Of a stretch of DNA of 64,000 nucleotides, positions 33,062 through 43,195 are shown piece by piece. The translations under genes were made by a program, and so were the position numbers. The notes below the pieces were generated by a model. That model worked only from the letters and a program-made list of their open reading frames with translations, was not told the DNA's origin and made no database searches. The stretch's first letter is position 1; each line of letters opens with the position of its first letter. This DNA comes from Alphaproteobacteria bacterium (GTDB taxonomy: Bacteria > Pseudomonadota > Alphaproteobacteria > GCA-2731375): assembly GCA_016776605.1 (NCBI GenBank), contig JADHTB010000002.1:62001-126000 (forward strand), given 5' to 3'.

Positions 33062-34021
33062 TCACTCTGCGGCGTCGGGCCGCGCCGCATCGTCCCGGCG
33101 TTCCTTGGCAATTCTTTTCACCTCGTCGAATTCAGCCCGGCGGCGGGCGATTTCCTCGGCCGGAATTCGTTCGATATTCTGGAAATCCAGTTTCCATTCG
33201 CCATTCCTGTTCCAGCGCTGCGGCGATTGCCGCGTGGTGCGCGGCCCCGTGGCGCTGGCCAGTAAATCCAGCGCCAGGGCCAGGGTTTCTTTCTGGGAAT
33301 TCAGCTCGTCGGGCTTGCCGGCGGCATTGCCCAGGGGAAAGTCACTGAACAGGAAGCGCGGCACGCCGCACAGTTCAACAATATCCTTGGCACAGCCCAT
33401 GATTACGGTGGGAATGCCGTTGGCTTCCAGGTAACGCGCTGTCAGACTCACGGTCTGATGGCACACGGGTCAAGCCGCGACGAGGATCGCCGCTTCGGCG
33501 CCATCTTCGCGTAGACGGGCCAGGACGTCGGGGCAATCCTGTTCCAGGGTGGCCTGTTGGCTGCGGTTGGTCGGGGTGCCATGAAAGCGCGGTGCCAGCG
33601 CCCCGATCCGGCCTTCCTGGGCGGCGATTTTTAACTGTGCCAAGGGGAAATAGCTGTTGAGGTCGGCGGCGGTGGTATATTTCCGATCATAGCCGAGATG
33701 GGAAATCCGCAGATCTGGTGCGCTGTCCACCAGGTCGGAATAGACCCGATAGAACTTGGCCGAAGCATTGTATGCGGCACCCGGACCTTGATCGCCCTTG
33801 TCGGGCTGATAGGGGGCCGCGGTGACGACCAGGCCGACCTTGGTTTCGCCAAGGGGTTTTGCCAGCGGCGTGAATGGCACCTCGTTATATTGCGCCCAAC
33901 GGTAGGGGTTGCCATAGCCAAGTGCGAGATAATAATCCCGCAACCGTTGCATGTAGGGCACCGGCCTATCATGTTCGGCGGCGAAACCCAGGTCGCCGTT
34001 GTCTATCCCACGTTCATTCAT
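33062..34021 (-). CDS. GrdB/PrdB-family selenoprotein candidate 1 (in-frame TGA read as Sec)
   Basis: One reading frame on the minus strand broken only by TGA at 33470-33472. Read as selenocysteine it gives 319 residues with Sec at 184 in the motif AAUPVCHQTV (U-x-x-C). Frame and similarity continue on both sides: before it GYDRKYTTAADLNSYFPLAQL and GRIGALAPRFHG, after it YLEANGIPTVIMGCAKD and FLFSDFPLGN. These match the glycine/sarcosine/betaine/D-proline reductase selenoprotein B family. A SECIS-like hairpin follows the UGA directly. ATG 34021 is preferred (AAGGTG upstream); GTG 34030 is possible. The C-terminal 40 residues are charged. A second gene at 40563 has the same break at the same residue, which argues against a random nonsense mutation. 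The reaction is unknown; reductive cleavage or thiol redox chemistry is a guess from the family. Confidence 0.82.
33434..33466 (-). promoter_or_regulatory. Putative bacterial SECIS element 1
   Basis: Starting 3 nt after the UGA, the mRNA folds as GUGUGC-CA-UCAGAC-(CGUGA)-GUCUGA-CA-GCGCGU. This is a 6-bp upper stem, a 2x2 internal loop and a 6-bp lower stem with G-U pairs. The apical loop holds GU with the G at +19 from the UGA, in the window used for bacterial SECIS recognition by SelB. Confidence 0.72.
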
Positions 34022-34186
34022 CAGAAACACCTTTCGTGAAATTTTCGTGCTGCGTCAATGTAGCACATTTCGCAGGATAAACTGATGGGAGACTCAGGGC
34101 GCGAGTGGCGTTACATTGACCCGGAACAAGAAACCAAACGATGAAGGCCGGGCGCATAGGCGCCCGCAAGGAAGGATAGGTAAGAG

Positions 34187-35395
34187 ATGATCCCAGATTT
34201 TTCTGATCGCTCGAAAGATTTGCAGGAGCGGCTGCTGAAATTCATGGACGACGTGGTGTACCCGAACGAGGACACCTACAAGGAACAACTCGATAGCAGC
34301 GCCGAACGGTGGAGCGTGCCGCCGGTGCTGGAGGAGATGAAAATCAAGGCGCGGGAAGTCGGGCTGTGGAACCTGTTCCTGCCGGAAAGCGATGCGGTTG
34401 AGCCTATGAGCAACCTTGATTATTCGCCTCTGTGCGAGATCATGGGCCGCTCTCCCATTGCCGCAGAAGCCACCAATTGCTCGGCGCCTGACACCGGCAA
34501 CATGGAAGTGTTCACCCGTTATGGCACCGACGAGCACAAGGAACGCTGGTTGAAACCGCTGTTGGAAGGCAAGATTCGTTCGGCCTTTGCCATGACGGAG
34601 CCTGCCGTAGCTTCGTCCGACGCCACCAATATCGAGACCTCCATTGTGCGTGAAGGCAATGAATTCGTCATCAATGGCCGCAAGTGGTGGACCTCCGGTA
34701 TCGGTGATCCCCGTTGCGAGGTCTTGATCCTGATGGGTAAGACGGACCCTGATAATCCCGACCGTTACCGCCAGCAATCGATGATTGTGGTGCCCCGCGA
34801 CAGCGCCGGCATCACGGTGGAAAAAATGCTGCACGTGTTCGGTTATGACGATGCCCCGCATGGTCATGGCCAGGTTCTGTTCGAGAACGTACGGGTGCCG
34901 GCCGACGCGATCCTGCTGGGCGAGGGCCGGGGCTTTGAGATAGCCCAGGGGCGGCTTGGCCCTGGACGGATCCATCACTGCATGCGCCAGATTGGTGTTG
35001 CTGAACGGGCCCTTGAAAGCATGTGCAAGCGGGCTAAATCCCGTTTCGCCTTTGGCAAGCTGGTTTCCGAGCAGTCGGTCACCACCGAACGGATTGCCGA
35101 GGCGCGCATCGCCATCGATTCCAACCGTTTGCTGGTGCTGTTCGCGGCCCACAAAATGGACACGGTCGGCAACAAGGAAGCCCGCAAGGAAATCGCCATG
35201 ATCAAGGTGTCGGTGCCGAACATGACCTGCCGTGTCGTTGATATGGCGATGCAGGTACATGGCGGCGGCGGTGTCAGCCAGGTCTTCAATCTGGCCCATG
35301 CCTATGCCCATTCCCGCACCCTGCGCTTTGCCGACGGACCCGATGAAGTGCATCGCGCGCAAATCGGACGGCTGGAATTGCGCCGCTGGAACTGA
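34187..35395 (+). CDS. Acyl-CoA dehydrogenase, ACAD10/11-like
   Basis: 402-residue flavoenzyme. FAD-contact motifs are [17 protein letters not shown] and [15 protein letters not shown]. The C-terminal part has [18 protein letters not shown] and [10 protein letters not shown], where aspartate replaces the MCAD catalytic glutamate position, as in ACAD10/11 relatives that act on long-chain or hydroxyacyl-CoAs. It is a close paralogue of the gene at 46766, with most blocks identical. Divergent from selenoprotein candidate 1 and followed by a terminator. Confidence 0.92.
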
Positions 35396-35478: not shown

Positions 35479-36564
35479 ATGGCAATCGATGATTGGTTCT
35501 CGGCCAGCTATGGCGCGGCGCGGGCGAAATTTCTGGCGGCGGCCAAGAAGGCGGGCGCCACTCTGCAAAGCTATCCCCATCCCCTGAAAGGCCCTGATGG
35601 CGGCGATTTGGCAATGGATTTGGCCTATCTGGGCCCTAAAGATGCCAAACGGGTTCTTATCACCGCGTCGGCCACCCATGGGATTGAAGGTTTTTGCGGT
35701 TCCGGCTGTCAGATTGGTTTTCTGGAGTCCGATCTGCACGCTGAATTGCCCGGCGATATGGCGGTGATGCACGTGCATGCCCACAATCCGCATGGCTTTG
35801 CCCACCAGCGCCGGGTGACCGAAGACAATGTTGATTTGAACCGTAATTTTGTCGATTTTGCCAACCCTCTGCCCGACAACCCGGCCTATGACGAGGTTCA
35901 CCCCTGGCTGATGCCCGCCGATTGGGACGGCCCGGCCCGGCAGGCAGCCGACGCCGCGATCGCGGACTATATCGCCCGGAATGGTATGTTTGCCTTTCAG
36001 GCAGCGGTAAGCGGCGGCCAGTATCGCCATCCCGACGGCCTGTTCTACGGCGGTCAGGCCCCAACCTGGTCACGGCAAACCATAGAGGCCGTGGCCAGGG
36101 AATATCTGGGCGGACGCAGTCATGTGGCGTTGATTGATTTTCATACCGGCCTGGGACCCAGGGGGCATGGCGAATTGATTTCGGTTGATCTGCCGGGCGG
36201 GGCCGAACATCTGCGTGCCGTTGCCTGGTTTGGCGATGAGGTGCGTATTCCTGGTTCCGGTGATAGCGTTTCGGCCAAGGTCAACGGCACCATGGAGGCC
36301 GGCTATCACGCCCAGTTGAAGGATACGGAAAGCACCACCATAGCCATCGAATATGGCACCTTGCCGTCCGACCAGGTGTTGGGCGCCTTGCGTGCGGACA
36401 ATTGGCTGTATCTGCATGGCGACGTGGCCTCGGAAATGGGTCAGACGATCAAGCGGGAGGTCCGCGCCGCATTCTATGGCGAGGATCACGAATGGTACGT
36501 AAATGTCTGGGATCGGGGCCTGGATATAGCACGCAAGTCCGTGCGGGGCCTGGCTGACAGTTGA
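35479..36564 (+). CDS. DUF2817 family M14-like zinc hydrolase (copy 1)
   Basis: 361 residues, cytosolic (no signal peptide). The M14 carboxypeptidase-like zinc motif is ATHGIEGFCGSG (H-x-x-E, about residue 69), with the second histidine in LIDFHTGLGPRG (about residue 221). A general-base glutamate lies in TIAIEYGTLP, and VDLNRNFVDF is conserved. The substrate is unknown, probably an amide or peptide. It is paired with an equal-length paralogue that begins at its stop codon. Confidence 0.87.
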   Translation: MAIDDWFSASYGAARAKFLAAAKKAGATLQSYPHPLKGPDGGDLAMDLAYLGPKDAKRVLITASATHGIEGFCGSGCQIGFLESDLHAELPGDMAVMHVHAHNPHGFAHQRRVTEDNVDLNRNFVDFANPLPDNPAYDEVHPWLMPADWDGPARQAADAAIADYIARNGMFAFQAAVSGGQYRHPDGLFYGGQAPTWSRQTIEAVAREYLGGRSHVALIDFHTGLGPRGHGELISVDLPGGAEHLRAVAWFGDEVRIPGSGDSVSAKVNGTMEAGYHAQLKDTESTTIAIEYGTLPSDQVLGALRADNWLYLHGDVASEMGQTIKREVRAAFYGEDHEWYVNVWDRGLDIARKSVRGLADS

Positions 36565-37646
36565 CCGCCACCGAGGTGAATGCGTCTTATTTTCGCCCGG
36601 ACTATGCCGCCTGCCGGGACTATTTCCTGACTTTGGCCAAGGCTTCGGGCGGAGAATTGCTGCGGGCTGATAATCCCGCGCCCGGACCGGACGGCATTGC
36701 GTTGAGCACCGAGTTCCTGCGCCTGGGCCGACGGGATGCCGAACGCGCCCTGATCTTGGTATCGGGCACCCATGGGGCCGAGGGCTTTGCCGGCTCCGCC
36801 ATTCAATGCGCCTGGCTCGAAGCTGCCGGGGAAGCTACTGGGGCAGCGTCTTTGCCGGATAATATGGCCGTGCTGCTGGTGCATGGCCTGAATTCATTCG
36901 GCTTTGCCCACGGGCGGCGGGTCAATGAAAACAATGTGGATTTGAACCGGAATTTCATCGATCACGAAGCCGAACATCCGCACAATGAGGGCTATGCCCA
37001 AATAGGCGAGGCCATGGCGGCGACGGCCCTGGATGGTCCTGTGCGGGTGCGGGCCGATGCCGCGTTGGAACGCCTCCGGGCGGAGATGGGTCAATTGAAC
37101 GTCATGCGCGCCATCGGCGGGCAATATGATGCGTCCGAGGGGATGTTTTACGGCGGCCGGGTGCCGGTCTGGTCCAACCGGGCCCTGCGGGAATTTTTGC
37201 CCGAATTTTTGCCGCATGTGAAACTGGCGGCTTATGTGGATATCCATACCGGACTGGGGCCATCGGGCTATGGCAGCCCCATGTGCTATCACCACAAAGG
37301 CACCGAAGCCTATGATCTGGCGCGGTCCTGGTGGGGCAAGGATATGACCGCCGCCGCATCCAAGATCAATCACGGCAAGTCCGGCCATGGCGCCATGGAG
37401 GCATTGGCCCCAGCCCAGGTCGTTTGCCTGACCCTGGAATTTGGCACGCTGCCGTTCGCCGAAGTATTGGCCGCCCTGCGCGATGAGCATGCCCTGTGGT
37501 GGCACGGCAAGGAACGGGATGGCAGCGCTATTAGAAAGGCGTTCAAGGCCGCCTTTTACCGCGACGACCCGGAATGGCAAGGCAAGGTGGTCGAACGCGG
37601 CCTGCAAATCGCGGCGGATACCATTGCGGGTTTGCGAGATCTTTAG
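36561..37646 (+). CDS. DUF2817 family M14-like zinc hydrolase (copy 2)
   Basis: 361 residues, the same length as copy 1. The start is TTG 36561, forming a TTGA overlap with the upstream stop. Zinc and catalytic motifs are kept: GTHGAEGFAGSA, VDLNRNFIDH, YVDIHTGLGPSG and CLTLEFGTLPF. The flanking sequence differs clearly from copy 1, so this is an old tandem duplication with probably divided substrate range. An AT-rich gap follows. Confidence 0.86.
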   Translation: MTATEVNASYFRPDYAACRDYFLTLAKASGGELLRADNPAPGPDGIALSTEFLRLGRRDAERALILVSGTHGAEGFAGSAIQCAWLEAAGEATGAASLPDNMAVLLVHGLNSFGFAHGRRVNENNVDLNRNFIDHEAEHPHNEGYAQIGEAMAATALDGPVRVRADAALERLRAEMGQLNVMRAIGGQYDASEGMFYGGRVPVWSNRALREFLPEFLPHVKLAAYVDIHTGLGPSGYGSPMCYHHKGTEAYDLARSWWGKDMTAAASKINHGKSGHGAMEALAPAQVVCLTLEFGTLPFAEVLAALRDEHALWWHGKERDGSAIRKAFKAAFYRDDPEWQGKVVERGLQIAADTIAGLRDL

Positions 37647-40562: not shown

Positions 40563-41378
40563 TTATTTTTTCAACTGCTTGGCCAGGGCCTCCGATGTTG
40601 TCTCGCCGGCGAAATAGACGAAATCATCATCCCATTGCAGGGGCAGATCGACCAGAATGCCGGGTTCCTGTGCGGTGACGGCAAAATCCAGCGCTGCGCG
40701 CAGGATTTTTGTCTGCATGGCGCTATCGCCCGCCCGCCCGAAGGTATTGCCCATGGGGAAATTGACGAACAGGCTGCGCGGCGGTCGCACCAGGGCGGTG
40801 ATGTCGCGTCCGGTCGAAACGGTGACGGTTGGAATGCCGCTCTCTTCAACAACTCTCGCTACCAGACCCACGGTCTGATGGTCGAGGGGTCAAGCCGGTA
40901 TGGCGATCAGCAGGTCTACGCCGTCCGCCTTCAGCGCCTCGACAAAGGCGGGGGCGGATTCCCCGATCACCTTGCTACGGTTATAGGTCCGGCCCATGAA
41001 GCCGCTCCACAGCCGGTTTGCAACCGCGCCAATCTCGCCGGCTGCCGCCAATTCGGCCAGTCGGTCGACGGGGAAGAGGCAGTTGAGGTCCCGGTCCGCG
41101 TCCGCATGATCGTAATAGCTGTCGTGGATCTGGTATTGGTCCAGCGGCGTACCGGGATCGATCGCATCGACCCGGTGATCGTTGCGCGCGTCCGGGTCGA
41201 ACGGCGGGGCGGCGCAATGGGAAATGCCGCCGCTGACCAGCATGCCGACGGTGCAGTCCGCCAATGGCTTGGTCAGTGGGGTCCATGGCGCGCTGTCATT
41301 TTCGCTCCATTTATAGGGCGGAAAACCCATGGCGCCGTATTTATTGTTCAGGGCATCGACATAACGGATCGGTTCCAT
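40563..41378 (-). CDS. GrdB/PrdB-family selenoprotein candidate 2 (in-frame TGA read as Sec)
   Basis: A continuous minus-strand frame interrupted only by TGA at 40890-40892. Read as Sec it gives 271 residues with Sec at 163 in IPAUPLDHQTV. It is paralogous to the gene at 33062 over its whole length: PWTPLTKPL, DADRDLNCLFPVDRLAELAAAGEIGAVA in two parts, VVEESGIPTVTVSTGRD, SLFVNFPMGN. The cysteine of the U-x-x-C motif is aspartate here. The start ATG 41378 has a strong AAGGAGG site (41389-41395). A SECIS-like hairpin follows the UGA. It is monocistronic. Alternative explanation: a pseudogene, disfavoured by the intact frame after the TGA and the matching break in the paralogue. Confidence 0.82.
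40855..40886 (-). promoter_or_regulatory. Putative bacterial SECIS element 2
   Basis: Three nt after the UGA the mRNA folds as CUCG-ACC-AUCAGACC-(GUG)-GGUCUGGU-AG-CGAG. The apical G is again at +19. The upper stem is almost identical to SECIS 1 while the lower stem differs in sequence but still pairs. Confidence 0.72.
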
Positions 41379-42114: not shown

Positions 42115-43143
42115 CTACTGGAAATGTGGCAGAACTTTTTCGGTGAACATGACGAATGAGGCATGGCTGAGCGGTGCGATCATCAGGTATTCCAGCGGCA
42201 GGGTTTCCTGCATTTCCTGGATATCGTCGATGACTTTCTCGGGCGTGCCGCAAATGGCGATGTCATTCACATAGCGCGCCACCGGGTCGTCTTCTCCCTC
42301 CAGCGACTTGTCCAGGGCTTCCACCTGCATGGTTTTTTGCGCGCCGGCGGCGGTACCGCGGATATTCGCCTTTTTGCGCAGATAGCTGCCGAACATGAAT
42401 TCCGCGCCGCGCCGGCCCACGTCCTCGGCCTCGGCCGCGGTGGCGCCCATGGCCAGGGTCCGCGCCATGGGAATATCCCGTCCGGCCATTGAAAAACCGG
42501 CGGCCTCCAGAGATTGCTTGTAGAGAGCGCGTTTCTTGGCGATTTCCGGGTGCGTGGCGTGGGGATCCATCATGATGGAGTGACCGCGTTGGGCAGTCCA
42601 TTCCAGCGCCTCCAGGGAGGTGGCGGCAAGCCAGACCGGCATCGGGTCCTGTAGCGGCTTTGGCAGCACCTCAACATCCTCGAACTGCCAGAATTCGCCC
42701 TGATGGTTAAGTTTGTCGTTTTCCCAAACCTTGAGAACGATTTCCACCGCCTCGCGGAACCGGGCGTAGCTTTCCTTGGGCTCGACACCGAAAATCTTGT
42801 GCTCGGTCGGGTCAAAGCCGCGCCCCGCGCCCCAGTTCACCCGGCCGCCCGAGACATGGTCCAACAGGGCCACTTCCTCGGCCAGGCGCAGGGGATGGTA
42901 AAACGAGGCCAGCGAGACCGCCGTGCCAATGCGCAATTTCTTGGTACGCGCCGCGATATGGGCGCCCATGACATGCACCGAGGGGCAGACGCTGTAGGTG
43001 GAGAAATGATGCTCGGCCAGCCAGACCGCGTCATAGCCGGTCTTGTCCATGACCTCCATGCGGTGAAAGGCCCGGTCATAGACGGTTGCCAGCGGCACCC
43101 GCCGGCCCGGCCAACTGAAAAACTGAAGCACGCCGAATTTCAT
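42115..43143 (-). CDS. LLM class flavin-dependent oxidoreductase
   Basis: 342 residues from ATG 43143, preceded by a GGAGGTGG site. Bacterial luciferase-like TIM barrel: MKFGVLQFFSWPG, WLAEHHFSTYSVCPSVHVMGA (partly), GWGAGRGFDPTEH-type loop and DPMPVWLAATSLEALEWTA. Such enzymes use FMNH2 or F420 to oxidise small organic molecules. The substrate is unknown. It lies alone between the YqaJ gene and the VWA gene. Confidence 0.9.
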   Translation of the reverse strand: MKFGVLQFFSWPGRRVPLATVYDRAFHRMEVMDKTGYDAVWLAEHHFSTYSVCPSVHVMGAHIAARTKKLRIGTAVSLASFYHPLRLAEEVALLDHVSGGRVNWGAGRGFDPTEHKIFGVEPKESYARFREAVEIVLKVWENDKLNHQGEFWQFEDVEVLPKPLQDPMPVWLAATSLEALEWTAQRGHSIMMDPHATHPEIAKKRALYKQSLEAAGFSMAGRDIPMARTLAMGATAAEAEDVGRRGAEFMFGSYLRKKANIRGTAAGAQKTMQVEALDKSLEGEDDPVARYVNDIAICGTPEKVIDDIQEMQETLPLEYLMIAPLSHASFVMFTEKVLPHFQ

Positions 43144-43195
43144 GATGCCACCTCCCACTGAAACAATACAAAACGCAATGTCGATATTTAGGTAC

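What the first reader, a model, noticed from the sequence alone, without database searches (positions are those of the whole stretch)
33062..34021. Selenoprotein gene hidden as two ORFs: GrdB/PrdB-like protein with Sec184
The frame is interrupted by one TGA, then continues without shift into a conserved C-terminal half. The interrupted residue lies in AAUPVCHQTV, where the family carries its redox residue. A hairpin with a GU loop follows the TGA. Automated annotation would report two hypothetical genes. GrdB/PrdB proteins are best known from anaerobic amino acid fermenters; this one is in an aerobic-looking alphaproteobacterium, next to a CoA-transferase gene.
Basis: partly seen in the sequence, partly recalled or inferred. 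Interest (0 to 1): 0.88.

Follow-up and report, generated by a model that had tools for sequence, protein, structure and literature searches.

The report
PrdB-like selenoprotein gene, read-through TGA
A gene that looks broken by a stop codon is a real selenium-protein gene of a family already known from seawater surveys, but what the enzyme does in these apparently oxygen-respiring bacteria, without its usual partner and beside a CoA-transferase, is unknown.

Summary
On the minus strand, 34021 to 33062 is one reading frame interrupted only by TGA at codon 184 (33472-33470).

The selenocysteine reading has strong computational support. Of 99 relatives, 83 carry TGA and 16 Cys at this column, nothing else. 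Of 38 genomes with the TGA form, 35 have selA; of 12 with only the Cys form, none does. A SECIS hairpin is conserved in TGA genes beyond what protein and codon usage explain; Cys genes show no such excess. This genome has selA, selB, tRNA-Sec (UCA), a selD with its own TGA, and six family members, all with TGA; a second one lies in the window (41378-40566).

The kind is known: PrdB-type UxxC selenoproteins were counted in Sargasso Sea and GOS data. It is not a D-proline or glycine reductase subunit: it fails the PrdB equivalog cut-off, and PrdA/GrdE and GrdA partners were not found in 22 genomes.

New here, as far as the searched papers show: a conserved operon with one class-III CoA-transferase subfamily, in six alphaproteobacterial families and in Rokubacteria. 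I infer a stand-alone, thiol-regenerated reductase for a small carboxylate or its CoA ester; the substrate is unknown.

The parts
33062..34021 (-). Selenoprotein gene of the GrdB/PrdB superfamily (subtype A), 319 residues with Sec184; stop TGA at 33064-33062; ATG at 34021, alternative GTG at 34030
33470..33472 (-). In-frame TGA read as selenocysteine 184 (UxxC motif U-P-V-C187-H188)
   Evidence: homologous codon is TGA in 83 and TGC/TGT in 16 of 99 relatives; aligned with Sec of clostridial PrdB
33443..33457 (-). SECIS apical hairpin, stem positions 16-20 / 26-30 counted from U of UGA, GU at 33451-33450 in the loop
31825..33042 (-). CaiB/BaiF family III CoA-transferase (PF02515) directly downstream, same strand; conserved partner
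34187..35395 (+). Acyl-CoA dehydrogenase, divergently transcribed; kept beside the selenoprotein gene in the same genus
40566..41378 (-). Second family member (subtype B), Sec codon TGA at 40892, motif UPLDHQTV (Asp in place of the resolving Cys)
42118..43158 (-). Luciferase-like flavin monooxygenase (PF00296) near the subtype B gene; such genes lie near subtype B members in other genomes too
35479..37646 (+). Two tandem DUF2817 (M14/aspartoacylase-like) genes, synteny kept within the genus; a role in the same pathway is only a guess

Best explanation
The locus encodes a genuine selenoprotein. UGA codon 184 is read as selenocysteine by SelB and tRNA-Sec, directed by the SECIS hairpin 12-27 bases downstream (strong comparative evidence; not shown by experiment). 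The protein is a stand-alone, PrdB-type member of the GrdB/PrdB superfamily that works without a pyruvoyl partner subunit (partner absence tested). Inferred mechanism: the selenolate at the N-terminal end of helix 185-200 attacks the substrate at a cleavable bond, the seleno-adduct or selenenyl-sulfide is resolved by C187 or, in the subtype that lacks that Cys, by an external thiol, and glutathione or thioredoxin regenerates the enzyme. The downstream family III CoA-transferase passes CoA onto or off the carboxylate that is substrate or product, feeding it to acyl-CoA metabolism. The selenoprotein claim is about 98% likely; the reductase plus CoA-transferase mechanism about 40%; the substrate is not identified. 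The confidence given is for the whole statement.
For: Sec or Cys only at the column: 83 TGA and 16 TGC/TGT of 99, no other internal stop except one TAG elsewhere in a Cys member. All 119 hits of a TGA+SECIS pattern in named genomes are family members with the TGA at this site. Co-occurrence with selA: 35 of 38 Sec genomes, 0 of 12 Cys-only genomes, p = 3.7e-9; over 385 genomes p = 1.6e-31. SECIS: mean 4.74 of 5 pairs against 3.10 +- 0.10 after synonymous codon resampling (maximum of 1000 resamplings 3.41); Cys genes 2.94 against 2.96; GU at 22-23 in 82/82 Sec and 7/16 Cys; compensating synonymous changes such as CAG..CTG to CAA..TTG. Full Sec machinery in the genome. At least 9 Sec/Cys changes on the tree. 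CoA-transferase directly downstream on the same strand in 10 of 54 subtype A genes, six alphaproteobacterial families, against 3 of 870 non-adjacent ORFs, and in 15 of 90 further loci including Rokubacteria and a Steroidobacter MAG. Confident model (pLDDT 93.1), Sec184 directly before helix 185-200. PF09338 and PF04723 not found in 22 Sec genomes; the PF09338 search finds PrdA in a control record.
Against: No experiment. Three Sec genomes show no selA (G011, 77% complete; G264 and G314, drafts rated 100% and 95% complete). G123's copy (L105) has a weaker hairpin. The CoA-transferase is adjacent in only a minority of members, so it may mark one sub-pathway and not the general function. No substrate evidence; no solved structure to place the active site. 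The absence of GrdA (PF04723) has no positive control.
Confidence: 0.6

Rival explanations
1. The TGA is a true stop: the gene is a pseudogene, a sequencing error, or two separate short genes.
For: Automatic ORF calling gives two ORFs; the hairpin's folding energy alone is ordinary (z -0.29).
Against: The same in-frame TGA in 83 genes across many families, no other disruptions, Cys as the only alternative, selA co-occurrence and SECIS conservation.
Confidence: 0.01
2. It is a working D-proline reductase or glycine/betaine reductase B subunit used for amino-acid reduction.
For: GRDB Pfam cut-off met, best NCBIfam hit PrdB, homologous Sec position and UxxCH motif; published surveys file such proteins as proline reductase (PMC1088965, PMC2398784).
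Against: 90 of 300 bits for the PrdB equivalog, far below the GrdB, GrdF and GrdH cut-offs; no PrdA/GrdE-type or GrdA gene found in 22 Sec genomes although the PF09338 search finds PrdA in a control; six paralogs in one genome with different neighbours.
Confidence: 0.05
3. It is a general thiol/selenol redox protein (repair or detoxification, thioredoxin-like role) whose neighbours are incidental.
For: UxxC motif; glutathione S-transferase genes next to several subtype C members; many different neighbourhoods.
Against: Subtype B has Asp in place of the second Cys; the same CoA-transferase subfamily recurs directly downstream across families and phyla; other neighbours are acyl-CoA dehydrogenases, AMP ligases and enoyl-CoA hydratases.
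Confidence: 0.3
4. TGA is a sense codon for another amino acid (for example Trp) in this organism.
For: The frame is open through TGA.
Against: TGA also ends this gene's own frame, the only alternative at the column is Cys, and there is a dedicated UCA tRNA-Sec with selA, selB and selD.
Confidence: 0.005

Closest known systems
PrdB-type selenoproteins of marine metagenomes (pfam07355, UxxC; 42 genes in the Sargasso Sea, 235 Sec and 110 Cys in GOS; PMC1088965, PMC2398784)
   Same: Same Pfam family, same UxxC motif, Sec and Cys forms side by side, open-ocean bacteria; very probably the same proteins
   Different: Those papers counted sequences and called them proline reductase; no operon, partner test, subtypes or selA co-occurrence is described in the passages read
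D-proline reductase subunit PrdB (TIGR04483; clostridia)
   Same: Sec at the homologous position followed by xxCH; about 33% identity over 200 residues
   Different: Score 90 against cut-off 300; extra N-terminal part and about 70 extra C-terminal residues here; no PrdA partner; different operon
GrdB / GrdF / GrdH, glycine, sarcosine and betaine reductase B subunits (PF07355, TIGR01917/01918)
   Same: Homologous Sec-bearing C-terminal part
   Different: 431-435 residues, work with GrdE-type pyruvoyl subunits and GrdA; far below equivalog cut-offs here; partners not found
FarB, the GrdB-like protein proposed to cleave the C-F bond of fluoroacetate (PMC10838667)
   Same: Precedent for a GrdB-like Sec protein recruited to a non-amino-acid carboxylate
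   Different: Has a second protein-B component (FarE), anaerobe, no CoA-transferase in the four-gene operon
'Glycine/sarcosine/betaine reductase selenoprotein B family protein' of Roseomonas and Haematobacter plasmids
   Same: 61% and 57% identical, full length
   Different: Cys in place of Sec

Membership tests
Bacterial selenoproteins | In-frame UGA at a column otherwise Cys or Sec in relatives | tested here: met
   83 TGA, 16 TGC/TGT, none other of 99
Bacterial selenoproteins | SECIS hairpin just downstream of the UGA, GU in the apical loop | tested here: met
   4.74 of 5 pairs against 3.10 expected from codon resampling; GU in 82/82; control Cys genes show no excess
Bacterial selenoproteins | selA, selB, selC, selD in the genome | tested here: met
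Bacterial selenoproteins | Selenium in the protein | not testable with these tools
   needs 75Se labelling or mass spectrometry
Pfam GRDB (PF07355) | Score over the curated cut-off | tested here: met
   31.2 bits, cut-off 22
D-proline reductase PrdB (TIGR04483) | Equivalog score of at least 300 bits | tested here: not met
   90 bits
D-proline reductase PrdB (TIGR04483) | PrdA pyruvoyl partner gene | tested here: not met
   PF09338 not found in own genome and 21 others; control finds it beside prdB in Peptoclostridium
D-proline reductase PrdB (TIGR04483) | Sec at homologous position with xxCH after it | tested here: met
   TAG-U-GTCH aligned to VAA-U-PVCH
Glycine/betaine/sarcosine reductase B subunit | Equivalog scores (602-800 bits) and GrdA partner | tested here: not met
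   35-44 bits; PF04723 not found in 22 genomes, without a positive control for that family
Any reductase of this superfamily | Dithiol-dependent reductive cleavage activity | not testable with these tools
   needs purified enzyme and substrates

The most novel reading that the evidence does not exclude
A widespread class of selenocysteine reductases without pyruvoyl partner works in aerobic bacteria on CoA-linked or CoA-destined carboxylates: one operon (selenoprotein plus dedicated family III CoA-transferase) shared by Alphaproteobacteria and Rokubacteria, with side branches tied to a flavin monooxygenase (subtype B, no resolving Cys) and to the sel genes themselves (subtype C). That would be selenium-dependent bond cleavage in aerobic carbon catabolism, a reaction type best known from anaerobic Stickland fermenters.
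Probability: 0.35. Interest if true: 0.72.

Novelty: new member of a known kind. Interest (0 to 1): 0.5.

Why it matters
The family is among the most numerous selenoproteins of surface seawater, yet its function is only borrowed by name from clostridial proline reductase. The tests here argue against that name and supply a concrete handle: a conserved selenoprotein + CoA-transferase operon, also present in a cultured strain (Enhydrobacter aerosaccus ATCC 27094), and natural Cys forms for easy expression. It also shows that such genes are split by plain ORF calling; 83 genes in the sampled genomes of this one class have the interrupting TGA.

Tried and rejected
Thermodynamic test of the single hairpin is uninformative (z -0.29); replaced by the comparative test. 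Rfam at gathering threshold finds nothing in the window. The TAG reported in G071 raised the idea of a UAG-coded Sec; rejected, because that copy has Cys at the Sec column and the TAG is elsewhere. Solved-structure searches, by sequence and by fold, find no relative. Literature searches for this family with a CoA-transferase operon found nothing. Other TGA-interrupted coding-like frames in the window were scanned; +11352 is the ordinary end of one gene before another, the rest (such as +31807, +32572, -28674) were not pursued.

Full report
WHAT IS THERE. The gene runs on the minus strand from ATG 34021 to the stop TGA at 33064-33062. With TGA read as selenocysteine it gives 319 residues with Sec184 in ILVAA-U-PVCHQTV. 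Table 11 splits it into ORFs of 186 and 134 residues. Codon usage is coding-like on both sides in the same frame. Pfam GRDB is over its cut-off (31.2 against 22 bits) and the best NCBIfam model is PrdB at 90 bits, well under its cut-off of 300.

SELENOCYSTEINE MACHINERY. The genome (4.6 Mb, 44 contigs, 93% complete) holds selA (584 bits), selB (408 bits), tRNA-Sec (68 bits; ARAGORN: anticodon UCA) and selD (387 bits), the last with its own in-frame TGA in HGGG-U-GSKIAP.

THE COLUMN TEST. A profile of the five copies first found in the genome was run over 385 genomes of the same class; 51 have a match. I fetched the regions and read the codon at the Sec column: 83 TGA, 12 TGC, 4 TGT, nothing else, two of the Cys forms coming from plasmid records. 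No copy has another internal stop except a Cys form in G071 with a TAG elsewhere. The genome itself has six members, all with TGA. selA was searched in the same 385 genomes: 35 of 38 genomes with a TGA form have it, 0 of 12 with only Cys forms do (p = 3.7e-9); in the whole table p = 1.6e-31. These p-values ignore shared ancestry, but the tree needs at least nine changes between Sec and Cys.

THE SECIS TEST. Counting U of UGA as 1, the stem 16-20/26-30 forms 4.74 of 5 pairs on average in 82 distinct Sec sequences. Resampling synonymous codons with the family's own usage gives 3.10 +- 0.10 (highest of 1000: 3.41). The 16 Cys sequences give 2.94 against 2.96 expected, so they serve as an internal negative control. 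GU at positions 22-23 is present in 82 of 82 Sec and 7 of 16 Cys genes. Paired synonymous changes keep the stem, for example CAG..CTG to CAA..TTG in L110, L111 and L113, and subtype C uses a G+C-rich stem with other amino acids. The single-sequence folding energy is ordinary.

SUBTYPES AND NEIGHBOURS. Three sequence subtypes can be told apart: A (UPVCHQTV, about 300 residues, the finding), B (UPLDHQTV, no resolving Cys; the second gene in the window at 41378-40566) and C (UPxCTRAV, about 415 residues, C-terminal part without Pfam match). On the tree B and C are each one side of a fully supported branch, A is not shown to be a single clade. Subtype C genes often lie within a few kb of selA, selB and a SelD fusion. 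For subtype A, one subfamily of family III CoA-transferase (profile scores 608-648) lies directly downstream on the same strand in 10 of 54 cases, in six families of the class and once with a Cys form; only 3 of 870 non-adjacent neighbour ORFs match that profile. Among loci of named genomes found by a TGA+SECIS pattern, 15 of 90 with enough room have it too, including Rokubacteria, a Steroidobacter MAG and the isolate Enhydrobacter aerosaccus ATCC 27094. Some MAG names are doubtful.

NOT A KNOWN REDUCTASE COMPLEX. The pyruvoyl partner family of PrdA/GrdE (PF09338) is not found in the own genome and 21 other Sec genomes, while the same search finds it three times in a Peptoclostridium plasmid, once beside prdB. 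GrdA (PF04723) is not found either, without a positive control. The Sec of that PrdB aligns with Sec184. So it is a homologue that keeps the catalytic residue but not the complex.

STRUCTURE. AlphaFold2 gives a confident model (pLDDT 93.1, pTM 0.89) with Sec184 between strand 177-181 and helix 185-200, a usual place for a reactive thiol or selenol (general knowledge). No solved chain matches by sequence or by fold (best E 0.022; query-normalised TM at most 0.26 among the 50 rows shown).

MECHANISM. Supported by comparison: Sec decoding, SECIS, the conserved operon, lack of a PrdA/GrdE-type partner. Inferred: nucleophilic selenolate, thiol regeneration, and a carboxylate or CoA ester as substrate or product because of the CoA-transferase and other acyl-CoA genes nearby (acyl-CoA dehydrogenase, AMP ligase, enoyl-CoA hydratase). 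A GrdB-like protein proposed for fluoroacetate defluorination (PMC10838667) is a precedent for recruitment to other carboxylates, though it has a second protein-B component.

NOVELTY. The kind is known: 42 PrdB selenoproteins in the Sargasso Sea set (PMC1088965) and 235 in GOS, UxxC motif (PMC2398784). Sec use in aerobes is also established (PMC5029168). In the open-access papers searched I found no account of the CoA-transferase operon, the subtypes or a partner test; absence there is weak evidence. I therefore file it as a new member of a known kind with an open functional question.

Noticed in passing
window 40566-41378 (-): A second TGA-interrupted family member (Sec codon at 40892), subtype B with UPLDHQTV, lacking the second Cys; all seven Sec members and the one Cys member of this subtype sampled have the Asp.
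   Followed up: yes
L117, L123, L122, L125, L134, L126, L141, L116: Subtype C genes sit beside selA, selB or a long SelD fusion protein in several genomes of different families, as if this selenoprotein travels with the Sec machinery.
   Followed up: partly
L101 (G071:C321): A Cys member carries an in-frame TAG away from the Sec column; probably pseudogene or sequencing error, not a UAG-coded Sec.
   Followed up: yes
G000:C32:330101-331027 and G000:C2:25699-26616: The genome has two SelD genes, one with Sec in its own active site and one part of a 771-residue open frame.
   Followed up: partly
genomes G264, G314, G011 (loci L143, L148, L087): Three genomes have TGA forms but no selA match; two of them are rated 100% and 95% complete.
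   Followed up: no
window 35479-37646 (+): Two tandem DUF2817 genes next to the acyl-CoA dehydrogenase, kept in the genus; function unknown.
   Followed up: no
L105 (G123): A Sec member with a weaker SECIS stem (CAGTCGGTCAGTTTG).
   Followed up: no
structure model m569f2ba71992 of window 33065-34021 (-): Confident model of the GrdB/PrdB-type protein with no match among solved structures, so the fold of this superfamily seems not to have been solved.
   Followed up: partly
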